Shown here: positions 3,283 through 18,806 of the stretch, in pieces
How positions within the stretch are numbered: the stretch's first letter is position 1
Layout: each line of letters starts with the position of its first letter
Assembly (NCBI GenBank): GCA_028711875.1
Contig: JAQTRJ010000005.1
Coordinates: forward strand, 1-19,406
Direction of reading: 5' to 3'
Source: a bacterium
GTDB lineage: Bacteria > Electryoneota > RPQS01
Length of the DNA: 19,406 bases
The notes under the pieces: model-generated
Database searches by the model: none
Told to the model about the DNA's origin: nothing
What the model saw: the letters and a program-made list of their open reading frames with translations, nothing else
Position numbers and translations under genes: made by a program

Positions 3283-3288
3283 GGTGAA

Positions 3289-3294
3289 CTCCTT
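3289..3294 (-). promoter_or_regulatory. Shine-Dalgarno site that decides the start of protease A
   Basis: The minus strand reads AAGGAG, then 6 bases (TTCACC), then ATG at 3282. This spacing supports the ATG over the in-frame TTG at 3297. Confidence 0.8.
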
Positions 3295-3309
3295 CAAACA
3301 ATGCCAAAC

Positions 3310-3327
3310 GCGGCGTTCCAGCGCCGC
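3310..3327 (-). other. GC-rich hairpin between the two protease genes
   Basis: GCGGCG (3310-3315) pairs with CGCCGC (3322-3327) around a 6-nt loop, in the 55-bp gap between the tandem protease genes. On the minus strand only a short GTTTGG follows, so it would be a weak or attenuating terminator at best. No promoter is visible in the gap, which favours co-transcription of the pair. Confidence 0.35.
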
Positions 3328-3337
3328 CCGATAGTAG

Positions 3338-6055: not shown

Positions 6056-6063
6056 TCCATTCA

Positions 6064-6068
6064 CTCCG
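6064..6068 (-). promoter_or_regulatory. Shine-Dalgarno site that decides the start of protease B
   Basis: The minus strand reads CGGAG, then 8 bases, then ATG at 6055. The alternative GTG at 6064 overlaps this site and is therefore unlikely to be the start. Confidence 0.7.
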
Positions 6069-6284: not shown

Positions 6285-7514
6285 TCACTTCGTAGCCACG
6301 CGCGCCGGAATCACATGCGGAGTCACGAACACCATGATCTCCGTCTTGTCAAGAGTCTTGGCCTGATAGCTGAAGAGCCGGCCGAACAGCGGGATCGCGT
6401 TTAGAAGCGGAATCCTCCGCTCCACAAGACCGTCCTTGGATCGGATCACCCCGCCGATAACCACCGTCTGTCCGTCTTCCACCATCAACGTCGTGGTCAC
6501 CTCGGATGTCAGAATAATCACTCCGCCCGAAACGGTGGCCTCGCCGGATAAATCGGAGACCTCAGGATTCAGCGTCATGAGCACGTCTTTGTCGGGATTG
6601 ATATGCGGCGTGACCTTCAGCCGCACCGCCACATCAAAGAATTCCGTGACCAGATTTCCGGCTTCATCGAGCACGTTGATGGGAATCTTCTTGCCCGACA
6701 GAATCTCCGCCGTCTCGTTGTCGTTGATGAGAACCGACGGCTGCGAGAGTATTTCCGCCCGCCGATTCTCCTCGAGCGCTTGAATTTTGGCGTTGATATC
6801 CACCCCGTTTTCGAGCCGCCCGAACGTGAAGGTGCCCTGAGGATCCTGAATACCCAGGTCCACGCTGCCGCCGGCACGGGTATTCGCCAGCGGATTACTC
6901 AGATTTCCGATGGACCAATCCACGCCGATCTCCTGCGCCGTCGCGAAATCCACCTCGACGAACTTGGATTCGATCAGCACCTGCGCGGTCGGTTGATCGA
7001 GCGACACCATGATCTCTTCCATGTCCTCGATCACCGAGGGAATATCGCTGACGATCAGCGCGTTCGCCCGCACGTCGGCCTGACAGCGGCCGCGTTCGCT
7101 GAGCAGCTTCATCACCACCGTTTGCAGCTTCTCGGAGCGCGCGTACTTGATCTGATAGACTCTCGTCTCCAGATTCTCGAGCTTGCGCGCCTCCTCAAAA
7201 TCCTTGTGCGTGGAGACGCGGATGATCCCCTGGTTCTCGATCGCCACGAAATCGTTCATCTTGAGGATGTTGTCCAACGCTTCGCGCCACGGCACGTCAT
7301 GCAAGAGCACCGTTACCGATCCTTTGACCTCGCTGCCGGCCACGATGTTCATTCCTGAAAATTCCGAAATGCTGCGTAGAACAGCCCGGATGTCGGACTC
7401 TTCCACGTTCATGGAGATTCTGCCTCCCGTGCCGCGATAGGGTGCGGTTTGGCCGAATGCGGCCACCGCCGCGCCGATGCCGATCAGGAGGAAGAGGGTA
7501 ATTTTCCGTGTCAT
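6285..7514 (-). CDS. pilQ: Short type IV pilus secretin PilQ
   Basis: This is the outer-membrane secretin through which the pilus passes. I place the start at the ATG at 7514, where AAAGG lies 8 bases upstream and a signal peptide follows directly (residues 1-22, ending AAFGQ); longer starts add a non-hydrophobic leader. The protein has 409 residues. An N0/STN domain (about 33-85) is followed by one N1 domain (about 112-175) and the secretin beta-barrel domain (about 176-405), with VEDGQTVVIGGV and a C-terminal IPLFGRLF...KTEIMVFVTPHVI segment typical of the family. Proteobacterial PilQ is usually 600-900 residues, with AMIN domains and extra N-domains that are absent here. It is the last gene of the operon and overlaps the preceding pilP frame only if a longer start is used. 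Confidence 0.93.
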   Translation of the reverse strand: MTRKITLFLLIGIGAAVAAFGQTAPYRGTGGRISMNVEESDIRAVLRSISEFSGMNIVAGSEVKGSVTVLLHDVPWREALDNILKMNDFVAIENQGIIRVSTHKDFEEARKLENLETRVYQIKYARSEKLQTVVMKLLSERGRCQADVRANALIVSDIPSVIEDMEEIMVSLDQPTAQVLIESKFVEVDFATAQEIGVDWSIGNLSNPLANTRAGGSVDLGIQDPQGTFTFGRLENGVDINAKIQALEENRRAEILSQPSVLINDNETAEILSGKKIPINVLDEAGNLVTEFFDVAVRLKVTPHINPDKDVLMTLNPEVSDLSGEATVSGGVIILTSEVTTTLMVEDGQTVVIGGVIRSKDGLVERRIPLLNAIPLFGRLFSYQAKTLDKTEIMVFVTPHVIPARVATK

Positions 7515-7542
7515 CGCCTGCACCTTTTCCATTTGGAACCGG

Positions 7543-8148
7543 TTAATTCGTGTCGGATGCTCGGTCACCCGTGATATTCAGCGTCACTCGTTCATAGTCG
7601 CCGAATTCCCACACCTCCAGAGTGACCATGGAGTTGGTTACCGAGACCACGCGTCCCTGATAGATGGGATCTTCTTCCCGCAAAAAGAACGTCTGACCGT
7701 CCTTGTCGCGGATCATCGCCAGATATTCCCCCTCCGACCAGACGACGCCCGTCAACACGGCGCCTTGATAAAGAAGCAGGTCGGTTTTCACTTCCTCATC
7801 ACCCTTGTCGTCGCGAATGAGCGGACGAAACGGATCGCGCCGCCCCGACGGTTCGTAACGCACCGGCTCCTGACGGCGAAACACGGTGCTCTCGAGACTG
7901 ATTCTCCTCGTGCCGCCGCCGAACGACGTGATCATCTCGGTGGGCAGGACGTCCAGGGAATCCAGCCCCTGCATCTCCGTTGAAATTTCTTCCGATTCCC
8001 GTGCATCGGAGCCGACATCGGCCTGAGTCGGCGCGTTTTCCGAAATCGCTTTCGCATCGGTCATCGCGTCCGGCGCGTCGGCGGCGCGCAGCGACGGCGC
8101 TGCCGCCACCACGACGCCGAGCATCAGGACTAATAGCACGCGCTTCAT
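7543..8148 (-). CDS. pilP: PilP-like type IV pilus periplasmic protein
   Basis: The protein has 201 residues with an N-terminal signal peptide (about 1-23, ending SLRAA). A disordered, acidic stretch (about 24-90) leads to RRDPFRPL (103-110), the hallmark linker motif of PilP, and then a small beta domain (about 128-192). In known systems PilP binds PilN/PilO at the inner membrane and the secretin N0 domain. Unlike proteobacterial PilP it has no lipobox cysteine, so it may be periplasmic or kept by its uncleaved signal. The start codon overlaps the pilO stop as ATGA, which implies translational coupling, and pilQ follows 28 bases after its stop. The position between pilO and pilQ supports the call. 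Confidence 0.88.
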   Translation of the reverse strand: MKRVLLVLMLGVVVAAAPSLRAADAPDAMTDAKAISENAPTQADVGSDARESEEISTEMQGLDSLDVLPTEMITSFGGGTRRISLESTVFRRQEPVRYEPSGRRDPFRPLIRDDKGDEEVKTDLLLYQGAVLTGVVWSEGEYLAMIRDKDGQTFFLREEDPIYQGRVVSVTNSMVTLEVWEFGDYERVTLNITGDRASDTN

Positions 8149-8795
8149 GTTCGGCGTCCTCCCGGTTTGGCGGCCGCGGGCCGGCCCGGCGCCCCCGGCG
8201 TCTCTTCTTCGGACTCAATCCGCACCGGCGCTCCCAAGTCCTTGAAGATATAGATGGACGCGATGAATTCCGCTTCCACCGTTTCCGGACTGTGCTTGCG
8301 GCGCGGATTATAGGCCCGAAGTTTGACCTCATTGACGTTCACGATCCGGTCGAGCGCCGCCACGTCCGAGAGAAAGGTTCCCAGTTCGTGATAGGTGGAC
8401 AGCGTGCGGATCTGAATCGGATTCTCCCAGTAGTACGGGTTTTCCACCGGGTCCATCGGACGGAACAGCACGAACGTCACGCCGCGCTCCTGACCGGCCA
8501 GCGTGATCGTCTTGAGCAGGCCTTCCATCTCGCGCTGCGTGGGAAGCAGTTCGTGAGCGATCTCCCAGCTTCGCATCAGCCGCTCGTAATCGTCCTGCAC
8601 CGTTTGGTAGTTGGCCGCGATGCGCTTGCCTTTAATCAGCAGATCCGTCTCCATCCGAATCTCGCTGGTCAGGCGTTTCGCCTTCTCGCCGCGCGGAACA
8701 TACACGAAATTCACGAATCCGTAAACCATTCCGAACGCCAGCGTGACGAGAATGATCCACTTCTGTGTGGCCGGACTTCTCAGGTTGATTTGCAT
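8145..8795 (-). CDS. pilO: PilO-like inner-membrane type IV pilus protein
   Basis: This 216-residue bitopic protein has a short cytoplasmic start, a transmembrane helix (about 13-33), a coiled-coil region (about 36-85) and a ferredoxin-like periplasmic domain (about 86-190, including PIQIRTLSTYHELGTFLSDV). That order and the motif near the domain centre match PilO. A proline- and glycine-rich tail ends the protein. PilO pairs with PilN in the alignment complex. The ATG at 8795 is chosen because GAGG lies 5 bases upstream and the helix follows; longer forms overlap the preceding lipoprotein gene. It is separated by 7 bases from that gene and overlaps pilP by 4 bases. Confidence 0.9.
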   Translation of the reverse strand: MQINLRSPATQKWIILVTLAFGMVYGFVNFVYVPRGEKAKRLTSEIRMETDLLIKGKRIAANYQTVQDDYERLMRSWEIAHELLPTQREMEGLLKTITLAGQERGVTFVLFRPMDPVENPYYWENPIQIRTLSTYHELGTFLSDVAALDRIVNVNEVKLRAYNPRRKHSPETVEAEFIASIYIFKDLGAPVRIESEEETPGAPGRPAAAKPGGRRT

Positions 8796-8802
8796 GGCTG
8801 CC

Positions 8803-9228
8803 TCACTGCCCTCCCACGATCGGAGCGAACATCGTGGTGTCCACCGCCGGCAGCGTGAAATGAGATCCGGGACCAACGGTCACGCCGCCCTCCCATGAGA
8901 ACGTTTTGCCCTTCCAGAAATAGCCGACGCTCAGATCGGCCACGTAGTGGTACTCGCCCTCCTTGTTGCCGAGGAAGACGTTGCCCTGGAAGTGACCGTT
9001 TCCGTCGGACACCACCCAGCGATCCGGACCTTCATAGGGATTCTGTGCGTCCGGATCGGATTCGAACACGACCTGGACTCCTTCCACGCCGCCCGTGTGG
9101 CCGGCGTCGGTGTACACGTAGCCCGAGATCGTCGCGCTGCCGCTCCAGTCGTCTATCCCCTCTTCGCAGGCGGATACGACGAGCAGAACCGGCAAAAGCA
9201 ACAGGATGAATCGGGTGGACTTGCTCAT
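8803..9228 (-). CDS. Small lipoprotein with carboxypeptidase-regulatory-like beta domain in the pilus operon
   Basis: This 141-residue protein has a classic lipoprotein signal: MSKSTR, a hydrophobic core and VVSAC, giving lipidated Cys21. The mature part begins with acidic residues and then looks like one beta-sandwich of the carboxypeptidase-regulatory or SdrD-B kind (about 30-130, ISGYVYTD...GVEGVQVVFE...SDGNGHFQG). The ATG at 9228 has GGAGG at good distance; an ATG at 9234 lies too close to that site but cannot be excluded. The gene sits between pilMN and pilO, where no lipoprotein is normally found, and within tight spacing of both. Since PilP here lacks a lipobox, this protein could supply the lipid-anchored partner. 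That role is inference. I do not recognise it as a named family. Confidence 0.85.
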   Translation of the reverse strand: MSKSTRFILLLLPVLLVVSACEEGIDDWSGSATISGYVYTDAGHTGGVEGVQVVFESDPDAQNPYEGPDRWVVSDGNGHFQGNVFLGNKEGEYHYVADLSVGYFWKGKTFSWEGGVTVGPGSHFTLPAVDTTMFAPIVGGQ

Positions 9229-9260
9229 TTTCATTCTCCTCCGAGGTCTATCGTCAAATA

Positions 9261-10985
9261 TTATTTAGCGGCTTGTGCCTTCAACTCATCCTCGACGGCG
9301 CGTTTCTCACGAATCGCCTGCGCGCCCCGCTTCAACAGGTCTTCTTTGGGCGGCGGCGGGGGCGGAGCCAGTCCCAGTTGATTCATCTGAAGCTGCAGCG
9401 TGAAGCGCGTCACGTTGACCGGTCCGATTTCCGCTTGCTCCGAAACCAGCAAATCCACGCCGCCAATCGCCTCACTCTGCAGAAGATTGCTCATGAACTG
9501 CGAGACTTTCAGATTGTTGCTGGTCACGCCGATCAGTTTGGCGCCCGCGCCGCGCGGAGTCGGCGCTTCCTGAACCTCGGTTATCCACGTCAATTCGGGC
9601 AGCGCCTGATTCACGATTTGCAGAAGCTGGATACGGGCAAAACGGTTGCGGTCGAGCTGAGCGACCACGTCCATTCGAGCGGCGATGTCGGCGCGCTTGC
9701 GGCTGAGTTCCTCTACCAGCGTGATCTTGTCGCGATAGAGATTCGCCTCTTCGCGCACCGTGTTCAGTTTGCTCGTCAGGGTTCCCAGTGTGTTTTCCTG
9801 AGAAAGATAGACCATCACGATCCCGAACAGCAGGACCGAAAAACCCATAATCGGCAGCACCGTCCCCAGACCGGCATTCTTCCCCCGGTGATGTCCCGGC
9901 CGATCCTGCGGAAGCAGAAGATTGAATCCGGTGTGATTCTCATCGAGAACGCGCAGCGCCAGCCCTACGGCGGCGGTGAAATCGGGAGCGCATTCCGAGA
10001 CCGTATCCGCATTCACAGTTTTCTCGTTGATCTCGAAGCGACGGAACGGATCGGCGATGGCGATGTCAATTCCGAAACGAGTCCGCAGCGCCTCTTCGAG
10101 CATCGGCAGATGCGCACCGCCGCCGCACAACACGAGGTGCGTGGTTGGACTCTCCGCGCCAAATCCGAAATACTCGGGGAAACTGCGCTCGATCTGCTCC
10201 GCCACCTTCTCGCTCACCATGTGCGCCACTCGCGCCAGCACCTCGTCTTCGTCGGAACCGCGCTCGCGGATGGCCAGGATCGCCGCCGCTCGTTCGAACG
10301 GAATTCCGAGCTCGTGGATCAGTCCCTCGACGTAGGTCTTTCCGCCGACGTTGATGCTGCGGTTGGTTTCGTACACGCCGTTCGCAAAGAGCGTGACTTC
10401 GGTGGCTTGGAAGCCGATCTGCAGCGCGGCGACAATACCCTGCTCGTCGAAATAACCGGCCTCCGTCAGCGCCGCCTGCAGCGCAAACGGCTCCGCGTCG
10501 AGAATCGCCGCCTGACCGCCCGCCCAACGCAGATGATCCACCGCATCGCTCACGACCTCGTTTTTGGCGGCCACCAGCAGCACTTCCATTCGCCCCGTAT
10601 CGGCGTCCTGCGGCAGCTTCGCGTAATCCAGCGACACCTCGTTGATATCGAAGGGCAGATTGCTGCGGGCTTCGTAGGCGATCGTTCCGCGAAGCTCCTC
10701 GTCGCTCATCTCGTCGGTGGTCACGCGTTTGATCAGCACGCGCCGTCCGCCGACCGACATGGCGATCTCGCGATTCTTGATCTGATTTTCCTTGAGCAGA
10801 TCGGCGATGCTGGTGCAGACCGCCTGTGAATCCAGAATCGCTCCTTCGACGATGGCGTCATGCGGCAGCTGTTTCGAAGCCAACCGCTCGACGCACACGG
10901 AACCGCGCTTGGCGTGCAGCACGGCCAATTGAATGCTCCGGCTGCCGATGTCGAGTCCGATTCCCAATTTGTTGCGTTTCGCCAT
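9261..10985 (-). CDS. pilM: PilM-PilN fusion protein of the type IV pilus alignment complex
   Basis: One 574-residue frame covers both normally separate proteins. Residues 1-348 are PilM, an actin-like ATP-binding fold with GLDIGSRSI (10-18) as the first phosphate motif, ALQIGF (187-192) and VLCGGGAHLP (285-294), ending in the usual GLALR. The PilN part follows at once with FNLLLPQ (354-360), the counterpart of the INLLP tail that docks into PilM, then a transmembrane helix (about 373-395), a coiled coil (about 398-445) and a ferredoxin-like PilN domain (about 448-536). A run of six prolines (541-546) and a charged helix end the protein. In other species the cytoplasmic PilN peptide binds PilM in trans, whereas here it is in cis. 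AAGGG precedes the ATG at 10985. The gene lies 28 bases after the kinase-like gene. Confidence 0.94.
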   Translation of the reverse strand: MAKRNKLGIGLDIGSRSIQLAVLHAKRGSVCVERLASKQLPHDAIVEGAILDSQAVCTSIADLLKENQIKNREIAMSVGGRRVLIKRVTTDEMSDEELRGTIAYEARSNLPFDINEVSLDYAKLPQDADTGRMEVLLVAAKNEVVSDAVDHLRWAGGQAAILDAEPFALQAALTEAGYFDEQGIVAALQIGFQATEVTLFANGVYETNRSINVGGKTYVEGLIHELGIPFERAAAILAIRERGSDEDEVLARVAHMVSEKVAEQIERSFPEYFGFGAESPTTHLVLCGGGAHLPMLEEALRTRFGIDIAIADPFRRFEINEKTVNADTVSECAPDFTAAVGLALRVLDENHTGFNLLLPQDRPGHHRGKNAGLGTVLPIMGFSVLLFGIVMVYLSQENTLGTLTSKLNTVREEANLYRDKITLVEELSRKRADIAARMDVVAQLDRNRFARIQLLQIVNQALPELTWITEVQEAPTPRGAGAKLIGVTSNNLKVSQFMSNLLQSEAIGGVDLLVSEQAEIGPVNVTRFTLQLQMNQLGLAPPPPPPKEDLLKRGAQAIREKRAVEDELKAQAAK

Positions 10986-11013: not shown

Positions 11014-12171
11014 TCACTGGGAGTCCGCCGTAGCGGCCCATGATTCCGCCGACTGCATATGACCCATGTCCATCGGGCGTCGCGGGAGCGTGATGCGGAA
11101 TGCGCTGCCTTTTCCCACCCGACTCTGTACGGAGATTTTTCCGCCCATCGCCTCGAGCAGCAGCCGGACAACGGGAAGTCCCATTCCTGCTCCCTGAGTC
11201 CCGGCCGCCGCCGAACCCGCCCCGCGATAGTATTTATCGAATATCTGCGACAATTCGCTGTCGGGAATTCCCACTCCGCTGTCGCGCACGGTAATATCCA
11301 CGTAGGCTTCGTGATCTTCCGCGACCACCTCAATCGTTCCGCCCTGCGGCGAATGGTGCAGTCCGTTCTGGATCAAATTGATCAGCACGCGCTCGACTGC
11401 GTCGCGCGGCAGATACATCGGCGGCATGGCCTCCGGTACGGACAGCGAAATCACCGCGTTCCGCCGCGACGCCTCGTCGGCGCAGTGCGCTACCGACGCT
11501 TCGATCACCGTGCGCAGCGGCATCACGTCCGATTCAATCTCCAGCGTGGCATTTTCCAGCCGCCGCACGTCCAGAATGTTCTCCACGATGCGCCCCAAGT
11601 GTTCCACTTCCTCCTCGATGATCTGCGTATAGCGCGCATGCTGCGTTTCGGACAAATCGCGGAGGCGGCGCAGCGTATAGACGTATCCCTTAATTAAACC
11701 CAGCGACGTGCGAAGAGCGAAATCCACGGCGGTGCGCCGGCTCTCGGACGCATCCCACAGCTTCTGTTCCAACACGGCTTCCTGCGTGATGTCCCGGCCG
11801 ATCCCCGCGACCGCCCACGCGTCGCCGCCCTGCACCAGAGGATGCTCCATCACTTCGAATACCGCGCGTCGTCCCTCCGCAAAGCGGACGATCCGCGTGG
11901 ATCGCTCCGGCCGCTTGCCGGCGAGAATTTCCTTCAGAATCCGCTTCGCCGTCGCCACATTGTCGTCGTCCAGATAGTCGAACAGATTCGTTCCGAGAAT
12001 CGCCTCGCGCGGCGATTGGAACAGCATGCACAATCGCGGATTGACGCAAAGAAAGTCGCCGCTTGGGCTGAGAATATACGCAATGTCGGCGCACGTCTCG
12101 ATCACCTGTTGCCACGGATTCTCACCCAGCGGCACGTGGTGCGTGTCTTGGAGCTTGTGCAGGAGCGTCAC
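11014..12171 (-). CDS. PAS-domain histidine-kinase-like protein lacking the phosphoacceptor histidine
   Basis: The protein has 385 residues, no signal or membrane segment, and so is cytoplasmic. A PAS domain covers about 20-130. The dimerisation region (about 140-210) resembles HisKA, but where kinases read SHELRTPL this protein reads DFALRTSL (150-157), so Phe151 replaces the histidine. The HATPase domain (about 255-365) is intact, with Asn269 in the N box, DSGVGIP (297-303) and GAGMGLPVV (327-335). ATP binding is therefore expected, but ordinary autophosphorylation is not. It could be a phosphatase, an allosteric partner of another kinase, or a scaffold. It starts at a GTG overlapping the stop of the response regulator gene (GTGA), so the two are translationally coupled and probably work together. 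It precedes pilMN by 28 bases. Confidence 0.9.
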   Translation of the reverse strand: MTLLHKLQDTHHVPLGENPWQQVIETCADIAYILSPSGDFLCVNPRLCMLFQSPREAILGTNLFDYLDDDNVATAKRILKEILAGKRPERSTRIVRFAEGRRAVFEVMEHPLVQGGDAWAVAGIGRDITQEAVLEQKLWDASESRRTAVDFALRTSLGLIKGYVYTLRRLRDLSETQHARYTQIIEEEVEHLGRIVENILDVRRLENATLEIESDVMPLRTVIEASVAHCADEASRRNAVISLSVPEAMPPMYLPRDAVERVLINLIQNGLHHSPQGGTIEVVAEDHEAYVDITVRDSGVGIPDSELSQIFDKYYRGAGSAAAGTQGAGMGLPVVRLLLEAMGGKISVQSRVGKGSAFRITLPRRPMDMGHMQSAESWAATADSQ

Positions 12172-12566
12172 CGTTCTACTCCTCGAAGCGATCCTCGCAG
12201 TGCGGCCCGAATGTGCTGGACGAGTTCCGGCACGGAAAACGGTTTGGCGAGATAATCCGCTCCCATTCGGGCCACTCCTGCTGCGCGATGTTTGCCGTCG
12301 CTCCGCGCCGATACGAAAATCACGGGAATGTCCGACGTGCGCGAGTCCGCCTTCAGCCCGGCCGCCAAAGCGAATCCGTCCATGTCCGGCATCGTCACAT
12401 CGGTAACAATTACGTCCGGCCGCCGGGCAAGCGCTGCCTTCTGGGCCTCGCGCGGATCCTGAATTCGCGTCGCCTGAATGCCTTCGGCCGCGAGTGCGAT
12501 TTCCAGCATCTCCGTATAACGCGGATCGTCATCCACAATCATCACTTGTATCGGATTTCTATTCAC
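12168..12566 (-). CDS. Single-domain response regulator (receiver only)
   Basis: This 132-residue protein has a complete CheY-like receiver and no output domain. The acidic pocket is at residues 12-14 (VDDDP), the phosphorylatable Asp56 lies in VTDVTMPDMDG, Ser86 in VSA, Tyr105 and Lys108 in KPF. Such proteins act by protein contact, as CheY or the pilus regulators PilG and PilH do. The start is a GTG at 12566 with GAGAAG upstream; an internal ATG at residue 9 would remove the first strand. It overlaps the kinase-like gene by 4 bases. Since that partner lacks its histidine, the phosphate for Asp56 probably comes from another kinase, or the receiver works unphosphorylated. The link to pilus control is inferred from operon position. 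Confidence 0.93.
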   Translation of the reverse strand: MNRNPIQVMIVDDDPRYTEMLEIALAAEGIQATRIQDPREAQKAALARRPDVIVTDVTMPDMDGFALAAGLKADSRTSDIPVIFVSARSDGKHRAAGVARMGADYLAKPFSVPELVQHIRAALRGSLRGVER

Positions 12567-12642: not shown

Positions 12643-14037
12643 TTACGGAGATCCGTCCGTTGTCGTCAACGGCAGGGCGGATCCCGTGTCCTTCGGAGGA
12701 TCGGACGTGCGAGTCGTGCCGATCCCGTTGTCGAGCAGAGTGCGGATTCGTTGTGACGCACGGGCCGTCATGTCCACTCCGCACTCCTCGGCAATCTTCC
12801 GCACGGCGGAAACGCTGACCTCCTGTCCCTCCAAAACGGTCATGGCAACGGCATGCTGGACGAGCCTCATCAGTTCCTCAAGATCCTCGCCGCTCTCGGA
12901 CGCCATGTACTCCACAACGTCTTCGGGAAGAGCCACCGTGCCCATGCGGTGCCGGATAATTTCCTGCTTGCCAAGCGCCGAATACGCCCCCACGTGCGCG
13001 ATCACTCCGGACTCGAGCGCCAACCGGAGTTCCGCGATCAGCCGCGGCTCGGCCGCCAGATTATTTTGCGCCGCCAACACCAGTTGCTTTTTATTCCGCT
13101 CCAAGTAGGTGTACGTCTCATGAAGCTCCCGCTGCGCCCAACTATGGGCCAGCAGAGCGTCCGCGTCGGCGATCATGAGCAGATCGAGTTCGCGATAGAG
13201 ATAGCGGAAGAAATTCAATTTCTTATCTCGGATGCACTCGAACAGATTTTCCAGAAAGCGCTGTCCGCTGATCATAATGCAACGCTTCAGCGGCGAGTGC
13301 GCCGCTGCGTAGTTGGCGATGGCGTGCAGCAGATGAGTTTTTCCGACTCCATGCGCGCCCCAGAGGTGAAACGGATTGTATCCCTGGTCCGGCTCGAAAC
13401 GCGAGACGGAGTGAGCGATGCTGAGCGCGAATTGATTCGCCGCGTCTTCGATGTAGCTGTCGAAGGTCGCTCCCCGCTGCGCTTGCAGGCTGCGTCCGAC
13501 GTGAGCAATGCTGCCCTCTTCCATCAGTCCCTGCCACGGACGGCTCCGCCCCGCATCCGGCGCCGGCTCCGCGGCGTCGGCTGTCTCGGACACGTGCGGC
13601 TCGCCGTAATGAAGATAGACCGCGTGCTCGATGGTGTCGTAGCGCGCCAGGAACGGCTGAATCTCGAAATCCGTCACGGAGCCCAGCGCCGCCAACGCCT
13701 CGCGATCCGTCGGATCGGACATCGCCACCGCCAGAGTGTGCCCGCTGCGGCGGATCGGAATCAGATGATGCCGATGTGCCACCGCCGCCGGAACATGGTG
13801 CACGGCTTCCGGATCAATTTCCACGTCTTCGAGTTTGATCGTCCGGATATTCAGCAGATCCTCGCTGATGGCGCGAATATCGTCTGCACTCAGCACTCCC
13901 ATCTGTGTCAGCGACTCGCCGACCGAGAGATTTTTCTCTTTCGCGAGGGCCGTCGCCTGATCGCACTGCTCCGGAGTGATAATCTGCCGTCGGATCAACA
14001 CATCCGTCAGCGAATCTTGTGATCGTTCCGACATCAT
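12643..14037 (-). CDS. MshEN (GspE N-terminal) domain fused to a DnaA-type AAA+ domain
   Basis: This 464-residue protein has two recognisable parts. Residues about 8-145 match the GspE/PilB N-terminal (MshEN) fold, with two helical repeats (LTDVLIRRQIITPEQ; SVGESLTQMGVLSADDI) and a following alpha/beta part (TLAVAMSDPTD). A linker (about 146-188) leads to a DnaA domain III-like ATPase (about 190-425): TFDSYIEDAANQFA, then YNPFHLWG, Walker A GAHGVGKTH (227-235), a Walker B-like LLMIADAD (286-293) and a lid ending in VRKIAEECG. There is no DnaA domain IV helix-turn-helix, so it cannot bind DnaA boxes in the usual way. Key catalytic arginines of DnaA appear to be lost (see findings). The start ATG at 14037 overlaps the upstream stop (ATGA). 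A role in controlling pilus ATPases or positioning is inference from the MshEN domain and the operon. Confidence 0.9.
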   Translation of the reverse strand: MMSERSQDSLTDVLIRRQIITPEQCDQATALAKEKNLSVGESLTQMGVLSADDIRAISEDLLNIRTIKLEDVEIDPEAVHHVPAAVAHRHHLIPIRRSGHTLAVAMSDPTDREALAALGSVTDFEIQPFLARYDTIEHAVYLHYGEPHVSETADAAEPAPDAGRSRPWQGLMEEGSIAHVGRSLQAQRGATFDSYIEDAANQFALSIAHSVSRFEPDQGYNPFHLWGAHGVGKTHLLHAIANYAAAHSPLKRCIMISGQRFLENLFECIRDKKLNFFRYLYRELDLLMIADADALLAHSWAQRELHETYTYLERNKKQLVLAAQNNLAAEPRLIAELRLALESGVIAHVGAYSALGKQEIIRHRMGTVALPEDVVEYMASESGEDLEELMRLVQHAVAMTVLEGQEVSVSAVRKIAEECGVDMTARASQRIRTLLDNGIGTTRTSDPPKDTGSALPLTTTDGSP

Positions 14038-14771
14038 ACGCTCTTCGCCATGTTTTCGCGATAGTCCAAAAATTTGATCTGTCGCCCCGCTTCCGCGCCC
14101 GCCCACAGCAGCGCTTCCGGAGTCGTCTGCGGCTGCGCCGATAGAATCGCCGCCAGACTCCCATGTCTCACCACCAGTACGGTGCGATTCCCCTGTCGGA
14201 GCAGCAGCGTTTCCGTCTGATCGTCGGTTTCATCCCGGAACGCTTGCCACTGCCGGTGGAGCCACTCGCGCCTCGTCGCATCGTGCTCGGTGCTCGCCGC
14301 CAAATCGTCGCCCGAACTGACGCTGACGCTCTCGATTCCCGGCACGCGGTCGCGCAAATGCGTGAGCAATGCCTCCAAATCCATGGGGCGCTCGGCAGGC
14401 GCTTGCGTGATCGCTTCGCCTCGTTCCGCAGCCGCCTCGGACAGTTTGTCCCGCAAGAGAGTTGCCATGTCTTCGCGGACTGATCTCTCCGGCGGCAGCG
14501 CCTCGTCATCCAGAAGATACGTGCCCTCGCTCCACGTCATCAGCCGTTCGAAGGCACGCCGCCCTTCCGCCTTGCGCCCCCCTTCGATCCACAAGGCATG
14601 CACAATTTCGCCGCCGACCATCCAGATGCTTCCGGTTCTGCGGGCGTGCCGCAATCGCAGCGCTCCGCTCCAGCCCTCGCGACAGAGCGGTTCTACGATA
14701 CGGATAACTCCGCCCGCACCGAGAGTTCCCATCCGGGATTTCATCACGCCCATGTCTGCCCTGCCCTTCAA
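14034..14771 (-). CDS. DUF4388 (PATAN) domain protein with roadblock/LC7-like C-terminus
   Basis: The protein has 245 residues, is cytoplasmic, and has no signal. Residues about 15-90 resemble DUF4388/PATAN, with a WSGALRLRHARRTGSIWM strand pair, GGEIVHALW and a helix then SEGTYLLDD. This domain is common in bacterial signalling proteins, often beside receivers and small-GTPase systems. Residues about 130-237 look like a roadblock/LC7 fold (LEALLTHLRDRVPGIESVSV, then NRTVLVVRHGSLAAIL), the fold of MglB-type regulators; this part is less certain. The start is a TTG at 14771, chosen because a full AGGAGG stands 6 bases upstream; an ATG at 14753 is the alternative. It lies 23 bases after pilT and overlaps the DnaA-like gene by 4 bases. 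A role in pilus regulation is inferred from context. Confidence 0.82.
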   Translation of the reverse strand: MKGRADMGVMKSRMGTLGAGGVIRIVEPLCREGWSGALRLRHARRTGSIWMVGGEIVHALWIEGGRKAEGRRAFERLMTWSEGTYLLDDEALPPERSVREDMATLLRDKLSEAAAERGEAITQAPAERPMDLEALLTHLRDRVPGIESVSVSSGDDLAASTEHDATRREWLHRQWQAFRDETDDQTETLLLRQGNRTVLVVRHGSLAAILSAQPQTTPEALLWAGAEAGRQIKFLDYRENMAKSV

Positions 14772-14794: not shown

Positions 14795-15910
14795 TTACGT
14801 CGCGGCCCCGACCGAATCCGTCGTCGACAAGCGCGAACCGGAGCTGTTGATGCCGCGCACCGCCATCTCCACGTCGTGCGGGTTGCTCGCGCTCTCCATC
14901 GCCGTCTCATAGGAGATGTATTGCTGCCGCAGCAGCATCAGGATGGACTGATCGAACGTCTGCATTCCGTGCACTCCGCGATCGTCCTCCAGCAATCCTT
15001 GCAGCATGTGCATCTTATCCGGTTCGGCGATGCACTCACGGATCGCCGCCGTGTTCATCAAGACTTCCACAATCGGCACCCGTCCGCTCCGATCGGCGCG
15101 CGGCACCAATCGCTGCGAGACAATCGTCTGAATCGTTCCCGCCAAAATGGATCGAACCTGTGCCTGTTCGTTCAGAGGGAAAAAGGAAATAATTCGATTG
15201 ATCGCTTCGACCGCGTTCAGCGTATGCAGCGTGGTCAGAACCAGGTGCCCGGTTTCCGCCGCCTGCATCGCGACCTTCATCGTGTTCGGATCGCGAATCT
15301 CTCCGACCATGATGACGTCGGGGTCTTCGCGCAGCGCATGCGTCAAGGCCGAGTAGAAATCGTTCGTGTCAATCGCCACTTCCCGCTGCGCGATCAGCGA
15401 CTTCTTGTTATTGAACAAATACTCGATCGGGTCTTCGATCGTCAGGATATTTGCGCTGCGCTGACAGTTGATGTATTCGATGATCGCCGCCAGCGTCGTG
15501 GACTTCCCCGATCCCGTCGCTCCGGTCAGCAGAACGATCCCGCGCTTCAGTGCGGCGATCCGATCCATGACCGGCGGCAGCATCAACTCGCTGAACGTGG
15601 GAATCTGTGTCTTGATGGAACGAATCGCCAGCGCCGGTGTCCCCTTCTGAAAGTAGATATTGACTCGCGTCCGTCCGTGGCCGGGCACGCTCCACGCCAG
15701 ATCCAATTCCCGATCCCGATAGAAGGCTTCCGATTGCTGCGGAGTGAGCGTGCTCTTGAGAAACGCGTCCATTTCCGCCGCGGTCAGGCGCTCGGCGCGC
15801 GTCGCGTAGAGTTCTCCGTCAATACGCAGCACCGGCATGGCGCCGACCCTCAGATGGAGGTCGGATGCCTTCTTGACAAACAGGAGTTCCAACAGGCTTT
15901 GGATGTCCAT
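14795..15910 (-). CDS. pilT: Type IV pilus retraction ATPase PilT
   Basis: This 371-residue hexameric motor ATPase depolymerises the pilus. An N-terminal PAS-like domain (about 1-100; ASDLHLRVG near 15) precedes the RecA-like domain with Walker A GATGSGKS (130-137), Asp box TIEDPIEY (157-164), Walker B DPDVIMVGEIRD (196-207) and His box HLVLTTLHT (222-230). AIRECI at 289-294 stands where PilT has its AIRNLI retraction motif, so it is close but not identical. A variable, Ser/Gly-rich tail of about 20 residues follows. Length fits PilT (340-380) rather than PilB (about 560). PilU is a possible alternative because no second PilT is in view. No strong ribosome site precedes the ATG at 15910; the gene is 42 bases downstream of the TPR gene. 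Confidence 0.95.
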   Translation of the reverse strand: MDIQSLLELLFVKKASDLHLRVGAMPVLRIDGELYATRAERLTAAEMDAFLKSTLTPQQSEAFYRDRELDLAWSVPGHGRTRVNIYFQKGTPALAIRSIKTQIPTFSELMLPPVMDRIAALKRGIVLLTGATGSGKSTTLAAIIEYINCQRSANILTIEDPIEYLFNNKKSLIAQREVAIDTNDFYSALTHALREDPDVIMVGEIRDPNTMKVAMQAAETGHLVLTTLHTLNAVEAINRIISFFPLNEQAQVRSILAGTIQTIVSQRLVPRADRSGRVPIVEVLMNTAAIRECIAEPDKMHMLQGLLEDDRGVHGMQTFDQSILMLLRQQYISYETAMESASNPHDVEMAVRGINSSGSRLSTTDSVGAAT

Positions 15911-15952: not shown

Positions 15953-17143
15953 TCACATGGTCGTGTCGCCCGCGAGCCGTCCGTTGAGTTCCGTGATCCG
16001 TTCCTGCACGTCTCCGTAGCCCGGATTCTGCTCCCGGACGGCTTCGAAGTGCCGCAGGGCTTCTTGAAGATTCCCCAGCAATTCATGAAGGGTCGCAATC
16101 TGAAACGTGAGTACGATCCGCGCTTGCTCATCCCCGGCTTGCGAATCCCGCTCGCGTTCCAGCAGGTCCAACGCGCCCACGAGATCGTCCATTTCGTGCA
16201 GGCATTCGGCCAGCGACAGCGTGGCGCGAATCCGCATCGTGGGATCCTTGCGCGCCTGTTCGAATTCCGCCACCGCCGCATCCCACAGCTTCATCTCGCG
16301 ATAGACGGTGCCCAGATCGTAGTGATCCTTCCCTTCTCCGCTCGGCGGTTCCGCGGCGCTATCCATCGGACCGCGCGACATCGCGGTGTCCTCAGCCGCG
16401 GACATGCTGGCAGAACGACTCGTGGGCATGTACGCCGCGTCGGCGGCTCCGGACTCTGCGAACACTTCCATACTCTCGAGACCGATCAATCCGTGTCCGT
16501 CATCGCGGGCTGAACCAGCCGTCGGTGCCGCACGGTTGGCTCCTTCCGCCGGCGCCGCCGTGTCTTCTTCGACGGGAGTCTCCCGACGACTCTCGTGCTG
16601 CTCGAACTGCCGAGCGTACTCCGTCAACTGCTGCTGCAGTTCAAAATCCTCGATGTGACTGTCCGCCCAGATCGCCTGAAGTTCCTCGACCAGATGACGA
16701 TGTCCCACGGAGGACTTCAGAATCCGCTTGATGAGCGCCCGCAGATCCTGCTCGGCCGGATGAGCGGCTAATTTCAGATAGCTTCGCAGAGACGCCAGAC
16801 AGTCCGAGTAGTACTCCAGCCCGAGATAGGCGTCAGCCAGCTTCAGATGGATGGTCTCTTCGTCGGGCGTCAGCCGCAGGACTTTGCGCGCCACCCCCAG
16901 CGCGTTCTCATACAATCCTTCGGATGCGAACCCTTCGATGGCCGTTCGCCAGGCGTCCGCCGCCTTCGCCCGCACGTGATGGTTCCAATAGAAATCCCCC
17001 AGACGATTCCAAGCGGAGAAATCCCGGTCAGCATCCTGCACGCGCCGCTCATAATGTGCGATCGCCGATGCCCATTTCCGCTTGCGAATCGCTTCGCGGA
17101 CGCTCTGCTCCGTATCCTCTCGACCACGAAGCGCTTTTTTCAT
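15953..17143 (-). CDS. TPR-repeat protein of the pilus operon
   Basis: This 396-residue soluble protein has no signal peptide. Helical TPR repeats fill residues about 12-130 (WASAIAHYERRV, AWNRLGDFYWNHHVRAKAADAW, IHLKLADAYLGLEYYSDCLASL) and again about 272-385 (HYDLGTVYREMKLWDAAVAEFEQA and further pairs). A disordered Ala/Ser/Glu-rich linker of about 85 residues (185-270) separates them. TPR proteins act as scaffolds for protein complexes; in T4P operons similar proteins such as FimV or PilF/Tgl help assemble the machine, but I cannot assign it to either, since Tgl and PilF are lipoproteins and this is not. GAGG lies 8 bases before the ATG at 17143, just 10 bases after the PilX-like stop, which rules out the longer frame that runs into that gene. 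Confidence 0.88.
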   Translation of the reverse strand: MKKALRGREDTEQSVREAIRKRKWASAIAHYERRVQDADRDFSAWNRLGDFYWNHHVRAKAADAWRTAIEGFASEGLYENALGVARKVLRLTPDEETIHLKLADAYLGLEYYSDCLASLRSYLKLAAHPAEQDLRALIKRILKSSVGHRHLVEELQAIWADSHIEDFELQQQLTEYARQFEQHESRRETPVEEDTAAPAEGANRAAPTAGSARDDGHGLIGLESMEVFAESGAADAAYMPTSRSASMSAAEDTAMSRGPMDSAAEPPSGEGKDHYDLGTVYREMKLWDAAVAEFEQARKDPTMRIRATLSLAECLHEMDDLVGALDLLERERDSQAGDEQARIVLTFQIATLHELLGNLQEALRHFEAVREQNPGYGDVQERITELNGRLAGDTTM

Positions 17144-17153
17144 GCTCGATTCC

Positions 17154-18806
17154 TCAACTGATTTGGCGCCATACTCCGCGCTGGACCGTCTGCACTCGTG
17201 GAGTGCCGGGAGGCCAATTCGCGGGCGAAAGCAAGTCCGTATCGAACGCCCAATTTCGATTCGGTGCGATGTAGAACGATCCGTAGCTCCAGTCCGACGT
17301 GGCGCGCCGGCTGAACCACAAATCAATGATGCTGCCTCGATAGGTGACCGTTTTCCCGTCCCATTTTTCCAGGAAGCGGAACAGATTTTCCAAACCGCCG
17401 CTGTAGGTTGAGCAGGAATCCGTCGGCACATGGCCGGTCATGACGCAGGCATTAATGTTCAAGTTCGACGCCACGCGCCCGTTCAAAGATCCGCCCGAAA
17501 CCGCGTCGTTCCAGGAGGGCGACAACAACGTGATCGCGTCACACAGCAGCGCCGATCCTCGCTTGGGAGTGGTGTTGTAATGACCCTTGATAAAGAGCGG
17601 GAGATCGGTGGCGATCGTCAGTCCGCCGACGGGCAGAGTCTGTGCGTTGATGATTCGCACCGCCGGATAATCGCCGCTGGAATGGCTGATATAGAGGATC
17701 CCGTTCGATGGCGAATGCCCACCGGAAATCATGGTGTTGATGTTGATGTCCACCACGTCCACCCACCGGTTCTCCCGATCGTCGTAGAATTTGTTGCCGG
17801 TATAGGTGAAGACGCCCGGCTGTGACAGGGCATGACCGGCGCTGTCCGTTAGAGCGCCATCCACGTAGCGAACCGTCGCCTTGTACCAGTATTTCGCATC
17901 GCGTTCCTGCAATCCATCGCCGGCCACGCCGCGCTCGACGATGAGGTGCTGATCCGCCGCCGGAGGAATCGGCAGCCGAAGCGTCGAAAGCCCGTGCGAT
18001 CCGTCGCGGAAGTTTCCGTTCCACACCGCCAAGGCTTGATTCGCCCAATCCGCCTGACGATTGTCGAGCCAGTAGCTGCCGCGCCAGACGTTTTGCCAGA
18101 CGCCGAACTGATTCTTGACATTCACAGGCCCCGGCGTGTCATGGTTGTCGGTGTCCTTTCGGATGTGCCAGTACTTGCCCACCGCCGTCACCGTGGCTTG
18201 GCACTGGATGCTGGTCTCGGCGCCCATATACAGACTGCCGTTGGTGTGGATCGGTCCGGCGAACTCCATCGCAGGTCCGGGAAATATCTCCAGGTCCTTC
18301 TCATAGAACACGCCGAATTGAAAGAGCGGAATGAACTGATGCTGAATCTCCCGCACGATCGCCGCGCTGCGCCGTTCGCTCGACACTTGGGACTGAACCG
18401 TATACCGCTGGACGTAGCCCCGCAGTCCCGTGTAGTCGCCCGAGGAAATGATCTCTTCGGTCAGCGCGCCGACTTTCGTGATCTGGTATTGATCAATTGT
18501 ATATCCGGTCAGACTGGGGGGACTTAATTGATCCAATTGCGCCTGCGTCGGATCTAAGGACGTCTCCAGCAGAGTGCGCAACGAACCGCATCCCCATTCC
18601 ACCGCGCCTTCCGCGGCGTAGAATGTGCGAACGTTGTCGAGCTGCACGGCGGTCACCTGCGTCTGCCGCGTGGAACGCAACGCCGACGTAGCCGCCACGA
18701 ACAGCAATCCGGTCATCAGCAGCATCGCCACCAGCATGACCAGCCCGCGCTCGTTCCGGCTGCGCCCCTTACCCTGCCCTGTTCGCCCCGTCGCCGTCTT
18801 AGACAT
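17154..18806 (-). CDS. Large PilX-like minor pilin or pilus assembly protein
   Basis: The protein has 550 residues. After a basic, polar leader (1-20, ending RNERG) comes a hydrophobic helix (about 22-43, LVMLVAMLLMTGLLFVAATS) and a FYAAEGAVEWG segment (63-73), which is the arrangement of PilX N-terminal domain proteins. The Glu at position 5 of classic pilins is absent, as in other PilX/GspK-like members. The rest (about 75-550) is a large, beta-rich extracellular domain with AGPIHTNGSLYMG (183-195) and several Cys, far longer than PilX of Pseudomonas (about 200 residues). It probably caps or modifies the pilus tip. GGAG lies 7 bases before the ATG at 18806. It directly follows the PilW-like gene and precedes the TPR gene by 10 bases. 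Confidence 0.85.
   Translation of the reverse strand: MSKTATGRTGQGKGRSRNERGLVMLVAMLLMTGLLFVAATSALRSTRQTQVTAVQLDNVRTFYAAEGAVEWGCGSLRTLLETSLDPTQAQLDQLSPPSLTGYTIDQYQITKVGALTEEIISSGDYTGLRGYVQRYTVQSQVSSERRSAAIVREIQHQFIPLFQFGVFYEKDLEIFPGPAMEFAGPIHTNGSLYMGAETSIQCQATVTAVGKYWHIRKDTDNHDTPGPVNVKNQFGVWQNVWRGSYWLDNRQADWANQALAVWNGNFRDGSHGLSTLRLPIPPAADQHLIVERGVAGDGLQERDAKYWYKATVRYVDGALTDSAGHALSQPGVFTYTGNKFYDDRENRWVDVVDININTMISGGHSPSNGILYISHSSGDYPAVRIINAQTLPVGGLTIATDLPLFIKGHYNTTPKRGSALLCDAITLLSPSWNDAVSGGSLNGRVASNLNINACVMTGHVPTDSCSTYSGGLENLFRFLEKWDGKTVTYRGSIIDLWFSRRATSDWSYGSFYIAPNRNWAFDTDLLSPANWPPGTPRVQTVQRGVWRQIS

What the first reader, a model, noticed from the sequence alone, without database searches (positions are those of the whole stretch)
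12643..14037. MshEN domain fused to a DnaA-type ATPase inside a pilus operon
The sequence shows a GspE/PilB-type N-terminal domain joined in one frame to a DnaA domain III-like AAA+ module, with no DNA-binding domain IV. MshEN domains are known from pilus and secretion ATPases, where some bind c-di-GMP; DnaA/Hda-type modules act in replication control. I know of no described protein with this pairing. One hypothesis is an adaptor that binds PilB/PilT-type motors or c-di-GMP and uses an AAA+ contact surface to position or gate the pilus machine. A link between replication state and pilus activity is a more speculative alternative.
Basis: partly seen in the sequence, partly recalled or inferred. 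Interest (0 to 1): 0.78.

Follow-up and report, generated by a model that had tools for sequence, protein, structure and literature searches.

The report
Pilus-operon protein with DnaA-type ATPase module
A gene inside a bacterial type IV pilus operon joins the N-terminal domain of pilus motors to an ATPase module of the kind found in the replication initiator DnaA, and the same join recurs beside pilus genes in several phyla, which suggests an undescribed kind of pilus regulator.

Summary
The minus-strand ORF 14037..12643 (464 aa) carries MshEN (Pfam 5e-19) and a DnaA domain III AAA+ module (1e-33), without domain IV. It is no assembly error: the fusion is in 11 of 13 genomes of the order, in the same pil operon, and in four other phyla: at least 41 of 195 genomes. 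In one phylum it lies directly upstream of pilM-pilN in 20 of 20 loci fetched (21 found), in another beside pilB in 3 of 3. One origin of the AAA+ module is not rejected.

In the order, the P-loop is kept in 11 of 11 copies; the arginine finger is lost in 11 of 11 but kept in 28 of 28 DnaA controls. The MshEN c-di-GMP motif is poor, and the neighbouring histidine kinase lacks its phosphoacceptor His in 11 of 11. One relative has the operon without the four-gene cassette.

Best reading: an ATP-binding adaptor at the pilus motor base. A replication role is unsupported; c-di-GMP binding by this copy is unlikely. No structure could be predicted; partner and mechanism are inferred.

The parts
12643..14037 (-). 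Fusion protein, 464 aa: MshEN domain plus DnaA domain III AAA+ module, no domain IV
13855..14013 (-). MshEN N-terminal helical part (residues 9-61), c-di-GMP motif degenerate
   Evidence: NF053729 below cut-off; motif alignment and score
13594..13851 (-). MshEN C-terminal part (residues 63-148), the stretch matching Pfam MshEN and, weakly, the start of GspE
   Evidence: Pfam; TIGR02533 positions 2-70 on residues 80-148, E 0.0054
12793..13473 (-). DnaA domain III-like AAA+ module (residues 189-415)
13330..13359 (-). Walker A GAHGVGKTHL (residues 227-236); GK kept in 43 of 43 fusions examined
13006..13032 (-). Arginine-finger box (residues 336-344): ELRLALESG against RLVSRFDSG in the genome's own DnaA; Ala340 in place of the finger Arg
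14034..14771 (-). DUF4388 protein directly upstream of the fusion, 4-base overlap
   Evidence: Pfam 4.9e-9; with the window, 10 of 11 fusion-bearing loci of the order
12168..12566 (-). Single-domain response regulator; phosphoacceptor Asp kept in 10 of 10 copies aligned
11014..12171 (-). PAS/HisKA/HATPase protein without the phosphoacceptor His (pseudo-histidine kinase)
   Evidence: H-box in 11 of 11 copies; 6 of 6 kinases of another phylum keep the His
9261..10985 (-). PilM-PilN in one ORF
   Evidence: PilM_2 5.6e-54, PilN 1.8e-10
8803..9234 (-). Small conserved probable lipoprotein between pilMN and pilO, no Pfam match
   Evidence: 'lipoprotein' is from reading its N-terminus
8145..8876 (-). 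PilO
7543..8148 (-). PilP-like protein
   Evidence: Pfam below cut-off, position in operon
6285..7568 (-). PilQ secretin
14795..15910 (-). PilT
   Evidence: TIGR01420 440 bits against cut-off 319
15953..17431 (-). TPR protein (ORF limits; most orthologues are about 390-420 aa, so the start is probably about 95 codons further in)

Best explanation
The protein is a pilus-dedicated nucleotide-binding adaptor. Its MshEN domain is the kind by which GspE binds GspL, and by which PilB is thought to dock on PilM, so it probably sits at the cytoplasmic base of the type IV pilus. Its DnaA-type AAA+ module binds ATP and changes shape or partners with nucleotide state; in this lineage it probably does not hydrolyse ATP in the usual AAA+ way. 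The DUF4388 protein, the receiver and the pseudo-histidine kinase of the same cassette are its likely input, and the output would be gating of PilB or PilT at the stator. Shown: domain make-up, operon, conservation, motif states, absence of the whole cassette from the operon of one relative. Inferred: ATP binding, PilM/PilB docking, direction of the signal, effect on the motors.
For: Domains. Same operon in the ten fusion-bearing relatives of the order and the window. In another phylum directly upstream of pilMN in 20 of 20 loci fetched (21 found), and beside pilB in 3 of 3 of a third. In G011 the pil operon is present but the four cassette genes are not in it, pilT being next to pilMN, so the cassette seems not needed to build the machine. 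Walker A GK in 43 of 43 fusions; arginine finger 0 of 11 in this order, 28 of 28 in DnaA controls. HK phosphoacceptor His 0 of 11. PilB is described as docking in a PilM socket, its N1 domain as likely making the contact, and GspE N1E as binding GspL 1:1 (passages of PMC11656802 and PMC6882859). PATAN regulators are reported to contact PilB in Synechocystis (passages of PMC10519157 and PMC7690835); that DUF4388 is the PATAN domain is recalled, from no call.
Against: No structure, binding or genetic data. Docking to PilM is inferred from motor homologues. In the G290 phylum the fusion lies with DUF4388 and, in 2 of 3 loci, GTPase and Roadblock genes, with no core pil gene recognised in the stretches fetched; 2 of 6 fusions of the G186 phylum also lie without recognised pil neighbours, so pilus linkage is not universal in the wider family. 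Members with intact AAA+ motifs may be true ATPases, so the adaptor reading need not hold for the whole family. Walker B Asp is kept in 9 of 11 of the order (not in the window copy), so some hydrolysis cannot be excluded. Cassette genes diverge faster than PilT and PilQ but not faster than the TPR gene of the core operon, so divergence is no special mark of a regulator. Whether the cassette genes lie elsewhere in G011 was searched for the fusion only.
Confidence: 0.5

Rival explanations
1. c-di-GMP receptor: the MshEN domain binds c-di-GMP and passes this to the AAA+ module, which switches the pilus.
For: MshEN is a known c-di-GMP domain (PMC5013675, passages). Relatives in two other phyla keep glycine 3 in both motifs: 6 of 6 in the G186 phylum and 2 of 3 in the G208 phylum. 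The glycine test is strict: 0 of 5 aligned PilB proteins with this region pass it in both motifs, 4 of 5 in motif I only, the window genome's own PilB in neither. PMC5013675 says perfect conservation may not be required.
Against: 0 of 11 copies of the order keep both glycines; the first Arg/Lys/Leu is missing in 9 of 11 for motif I and 11 of 11 for motif II. The window scores 5 and 5 of 11 strict positions; own PilB 8 and 5, the other four PilB 10 and 6-9. NF053729 is below its cut-off.
Confidence: 0.18
2. Motor loader: like DnaC/DnaI/DnaA, which load the ring-shaped helicase (recalled), the AAA+ module helps PilB/PilT hexamers assemble on or leave the stator.
For: The module is of the DnaA kind (DnaA about 1e-88, Hda about 1e-20 with the family profile). 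It lies beside motor or stator genes in four phyla. Members in four other phyla keep Walker B, arginine finger and sensor II.
Against: DnaI scores 1e-13, no better than the unrelated AAA+ protein p97. In the window's order the arginine finger is lost in all 11 copies and the sensor II Arg in 8 of 11, so an ATP-driven cycle is unlikely there. No data on motor assembly.
Confidence: 0.15
3. Polarity regulator: the DnaA-type module, DUF4388 protein and MglA/MglB-like proteins form a system that places pili at a pole.
For: G290 phylum: Roadblock, Arf-like GTPase, DUF4388, fusion in 2 of 3 loci (Pfam on one locus). Gemmatimonadota: Roadblock, Ras/Arf-like GTPase, tandem DnaA-domain protein, DUF4388-TPR, CheB (one locus scanned for all of these). 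MglA and MglB genes near PATAN genes are noted in PMC4316618 (passage).
Against: Roadblock genes were found in 0 of 13 genomes of the window's order.
Confidence: 0.12
4. Replication-linked protein: a DnaA or Hda-like factor that couples replication state to pilus activity.
For: AAA+ module closest to DnaA.
Against: No domain IV match in the window protein or in eight other fusions scanned; DnaA and Hda cut-offs not met; arginine finger lost in 11 of 11 of the order, and the B/H-motif arginine too, though 7 of 28 DnaA controls also lack the latter; own DnaA elsewhere in the genome.
Confidence: 0.04

Closest known systems
DnaA (chromosomal replication initiator)
   Same: AAA+ domain III with P-loop
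   Different: No domain IV; MshEN at the N-terminus; arginine finger lost in this order; lies in pil operons
Hda
   Same: DnaA-type AAA+ module without domain IV (recalled for Hda)
   Different: MshEN N-terminus; arginine finger lost; NCBIfam score 79 against cut-off 195
PilB / GspE motor ATPases
   Same: N-terminal MshEN (N1) domain, same kind of gene cluster
   Different: No T2SSE motor domain; a DnaA-type module instead
MshEN regulators (REC, HD-GYP, CheA, CheX, cyclase, Ser/Thr kinase combinations named in PMC5013675)
   Same: MshEN joined to a signalling module
   Different: A DnaA partner is not named; the word DnaA does not occur in that main text (passages and term count; supplement not read)
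PATAN response regulators of Synechocystis that contact PilB (passages of PMC10519157, PMC7690835)
   Same: Probably the domain of the neighbouring gene (recalled), pilus control
   Different: Here the DUF4388 gene is separate from the receiver gene and coupled to the fusion
MglA/SgmX/FrzS/SopA control of pili in Myxococcus (abstract start and passages of PMC11580455)
   Same: MglA/MglB-like gene neighbours in two other lineages of the wider family
   Different: No Roadblock gene found in the window's order

Membership tests
DnaA | AAA+ domain III | tested here: met
   Pfam Bac_DnaA 1.3e-33
DnaA | Domain IV DNA-binding domain | tested here: not met
   No Bac_DnaA_C match up to E 0.01
DnaA | NCBIfam equivalog score | tested here: not met
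   139.5 bits against cut-off 343.9
DnaA | Arginine finger | tested here: not met
   Ala340 in the window; 0 of 11 in the order, 28 of 28 DnaA controls have it
Hda | NCBIfam equivalog score | tested here: not met
   79.1 bits against 194.8
Hda | Beta-clamp binding motif at the N-terminus | not tested
   No clamp-motif search was made; the N-terminus is an MshEN domain
PilB/GspE motors | MshEN/N1 domain | tested here: met
   Pfam 5.3e-19; PilB chains by sequence
PilB/GspE motors | T2SSE motor domain | tested here: not met
   No PF00437 match in the fusion
c-di-GMP-binding MshEN | Two 24-residue motifs with RLG/KLG/LLG start | tested here: not met
   SLT and SVG; 5 and 5 of 11 strict positions; the genome's own PilB also misses the glycine in both motifs
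c-di-GMP-binding MshEN | Binding of the ligand | not testable with these tools
   needs ITC or similar
Type IV pilus operon gene | Conserved synteny with pil genes | tested here: met
   10 of 10 fusion-bearing relatives of the order; 20 of 20 fetched next to pilMN in another phylum
AAA+ ATPase, active | Walker A, Walker B Asp, arginine finger, sensor II Arg | tested here: not met
   Window: Walker A kept; first Walker B Asp, arginine finger and sensor II Arg replaced; second Walker B acid kept

The most novel reading that the evidence does not exclude
A DnaA-derived AAA+ family was recruited once to the type IV pilus, as a loader or exchange factor that puts PilB and PilT hexamers on the PilM stator, as DnaC and DnaA do for the replicative helicase. 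Some members with intact motifs are ATP-driven and c-di-GMP-gated; the window's lineage has turned it into a nucleotide-bound lock run by a cassette with a second pseudoenzyme.
Probability: 0.13. Interest if true: 0.88.

Novelty: new variant of a known kind. Interest (0 to 1): 0.62.

Why it matters
Type IV pili use an extension and a retraction motor at one base, and how the exchange is controlled is, to my knowledge, not settled. A conserved protein of pilus gene clusters in several phyla that joins the motors' N-terminal domain to a DnaA-type AAA+ module, with natural members that keep or lose the catalytic residues and one relative whose operon lacks the cassette, makes the question testable. 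It would also be a use of a DnaA-type module away from replication.

Tried and rejected
Replication factor: set aside on missing domain IV, cut-offs not met and lost motifs. Assembly error: rejected, since 41 genomes carry the fusion. Order-restricted oddity: my reading, overturned. Fusion supplying MshEN in trans for a PilB that lacks it: dropped, because the window genome's PilB has MshEN and the one PilB checked in the G163 phylum has the C-terminal part of it. Viral source: one scan of viral contigs with the family gave no relative, a scan with PilB meant to gather sequences for folding, also gave none. It did give the Gemmatimonadota tandem-DnaA proteins. One search read wrong frames because these loci are not strand-turned; one search replaces it.

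Limits of the counts. with the narrow profile A1 missed fusions later found with A2 (G061, G346), so its six extra fusions among 386 genomes, and the 11 of 39, are lower bounds. One of 21 fusions of the G163 phylum (G520) was not fetched. The 43 fusions of the motif tally leave out the two 983-aa proteins of the G186 phylum (the one scanned has both domains). Of 29 loci tried for DnaA controls, L122 gave no ORF; 3 of the 28 controls lack my crude domain IV string and one is a 352-aa ORF. In the tree, 10 near-duplicate rows of 79 were dropped (6 fusions, 4 DnaA); the window's order is on a long branch and its place is unsure. Neighbour genes are named by profiles I built from the order's own genes, not by Pfam, except where searches are cited. 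The rank correlation of c-di-GMP score with AAA+ score over 43 fusions was weak (rho 0.37, p 0.016, rows not independent) and is not used.

Structure prediction: alignment A3 (window plus 41 sequences of loci of the search for related loci) was offered; each time the machine was busy. No model was made and no fold search run.

Full report
What is there. The ORF lies on the minus strand, 14037 to 12643, 464 aa. Pfam finds MshEN at 63-148 (5.3e-19) and Bac_DnaA at 189-346 (1.3e-33), with neither a DnaA domain IV nor a T2SSE motor domain. NCBIfam places the PilB model on 10-148 and the DnaA model on 170-419, both well below their equivalog cut-offs. By sequence, PilB and MshE chains of the PDB match 8-148 and DnaA chains 190-410; a profile of 16 family members reaches about 1e-39 and 1e-88. 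The fold was not predicted.

Operon. The genes run on the minus strand in this order: pilus-like genes, TPR protein, pilT, DUF4388, the fusion, a single receiver, a PAS/HisKA/HATPase protein, pilM-pilN in one ORF, a small probable lipoprotein, pilO, pilP-like, pilQ, then two large ORFs of which the one scanned is a subtilase. The fusion start overlaps the end of the DUF4388 gene by 4 bases, as do the receiver and kinase-like genes.

Relatives in the order. A full-length fusion is in 11 of 13 genomes. The two without are G003, 56% complete, and G011, 96% complete. In the other 26 genomes of the phylum none passes 1e-45 with the narrow profile A1. In the ten fusion-bearing relatives the gene lies in the same operon. 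Counting the window, the fusion and the kinase-like gene are in 11 of 11, the receiver in 10 of 11 (not found in G007) and DUF4388 in 10 of 11 (not found in G012). In G011 the operon is otherwise present and none of the four is in it, pilT being followed by pilM-pilN. The four genes thus look like a cassette that the machine can do without.

Relatives outside the phylum. A search of 386 genomes found six further full-length fusions; five of the six were scanned and have MshEN plus Bac_DnaA. With the broader profile A2 the counts are 3 of 3, 3 of 3, 3 of 3 and 21 of 147 genomes in the phyla of G208, G290, G186 and G163; with 11 of 39 in the window's phylum this makes 41 of 195, a lower bound. 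Context: G163 phylum, directly upstream of pilM-pilN in 20 of 20 loci fetched, 21 being found; G208 phylum, beside pilB in 3 of 3, with a histidine kinase gene on the other side in 3 of 3; G290 phylum, DUF4388 directly upstream with GTPase and Roadblock genes in 2 of 3 (the third contig starts at the fusion), and no core pil gene recognised; G186 phylum, two loci with pilD and a row of four MshEN-type genes (one locus also with pilB), and two further fusions without recognised pil neighbours. Gemmatimonadota records, which are named, hold an unfused protein with two DnaA modules in tandem (Pfam on two), beside a DUF4388-TPR protein in the four loci scanned for it and, in the one locus scanned for them, Roadblock and Ras/Arf-like genes.

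Origin. In a tree of 69 AAA+ modules the 26 fusion rows of the four other phyla form one supported clade (96/96) apart from DnaA; the window's order is one clade (100/100) on a long branch. The free tree did not join the two. Holding all 37 fusion rows together raises the likelihood by 7.2 units, so the free search had missed it, and is not rejected (p-AU 0.71). One origin fits the data but is not proven.

Catalytic state. In 43 fusions against 28 DnaA controls: Walker A GK 43 of 43 and 28 of 28. Arginine finger: window's order 0 of 11, G163 phylum 11 of 20, G208 3 of 3, G290 3 of 3, G186 2 of 6, DnaA 28 of 28. Sensor II Arg, same order: 3 of 11, 16 of 20, 3 of 3, 3 of 3, 6 of 6, 28 of 28. First Walker B Asp: 9 of 11 in the order (Ala in the window), all of the others. 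The B/H-motif position, tied to single-strand binding in DnaA by recalled knowledge, holds Arg or Lys in 0 of 11 in the order and 21 of 28 DnaA, so it is weak evidence. Nucleotide binding thus seems kept, and the parts for assembly-dependent hydrolysis are lost in this lineage; they were lost in part of two other phyla as well.

c-di-GMP. The motif and its extension are from passages of PMC5013675 and PMC11731258. Glycine 3 in both motifs: 0 of 11 in the order, and 0 of 20, 2 of 3, 0 of 3 and 6 of 6 in the G163, G208, G290 and G186 phyla; 0 of 5 PilB proteins aligned as controls, of which 4 have it in motif I and the window genome's own PilB in neither (a sixth PilB lacks the region). The test is therefore strict. 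On 11 strict positions the window has 5 and 5, its own PilB 8 and 5. This copy probably does not bind c-di-GMP; some relatives probably do.

Partner genes. The kinase-like protein has Phe or Tyr where the phosphoacceptor His should be in 11 of 11, with ATP-binding boxes kept in 8 of 11; the receiver keeps its Asp in 10 of 10. Six of six kinases beside the fusion in the G208 phylum keep the His, so the loss belongs to this lineage. The two enzyme-like members of the cassette are thus degenerate in parallel. Median identity to the window is 40-45% for the four cassette genes, 43% for TPR, 51-52% for PilP and PilMN, 62-71% for PilO, PilX, PilQ and PilT.

Mechanism. PilB is described as docking in a PilM socket, its N1 domain as the likely contact, and GspE N1E as binding GspL one to one (passages of PMC11656802 and PMC6882859). 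A protein with this domain and a different AAA+ module, encoded next to pilM or pilB, most simply shares or competes for that dock. PATAN proteins are reported to contact PilB in Synechocystis (passages of PMC10519157 and PMC7690835). I therefore favour an ATP-bound adaptor at the motor base, fed by DUF4388, the receiver and the pseudo-kinase (0.5). A loader of motor rings is the boldest reading not excluded.

Print check, all from listings. MshEN with DnaA: one paper, an unrelated c-di-GMP study by title and abstract. DnaA-like with type IV pili and ATPase domain: one, on the tree of life (37). Three of DnaA, PATAN, MglA, type IV pili: eight, none on this by title (65). Two of Bac_DnaA, GspE, pilus: 10 of 135 shown, none with Bac_DnaA (66). 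Three of DnaA ATPase, twitching, PilM, AAA+ ATPase: eight, none with DnaA ATPase (78). DUF4388 with type IV pili: none (31); DUF4388 alone: one, on nitrite reductase (77). PMC5013675 names other MshEN partners, and DnaA does not occur in its main text. The library lacks most subscription papers.

Noticed in passing
window 11014-12171 (-): Conserved pseudo-histidine kinase: H-box without His in 11 of 11 copies of the order, beside a receiver with its Asp intact.
   Followed up: yes
L069, L046, L076, L078, L032, L094, L099 (Gemmatimonadota): Roughly 640-aa proteins with two tandem DnaA domain III modules (Pfam run on two, no domain IV match), beside DUF4388-TPR genes in the four loci scanned.
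   Followed up: partly
L168 9443-15424: 1993-aa protein that by reading has MshEN, a DnaA module, a long repetitive stretch and a second DnaA module; fourth in a row of four MshEN-type genes (not itself scanned with Pfam).
   Followed up: partly
window 8803-9234 (-): Small probable lipoprotein between pilMN and pilO, no Pfam match, conserved in the order and found at the same place in many loci of the G163 phylum.
   Followed up: no
window 532-6064 (-): Two large ORFs downstream of pilQ; the one scanned is a subtilase with a Por_Secre_tail sorting domain, and at least one relative of them follows pilQ in the order's loci that reach so far.
   Followed up: no
window 9261-10985 (-): PilM and PilN in a single ORF; ORFs of like length in the order's relatives match over their length.
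   Followed up: no
L210 1862-3433: PilB whose ORF has the C-terminal MshEN part but starts too late for the c-di-GMP bundle.
   Followed up: no
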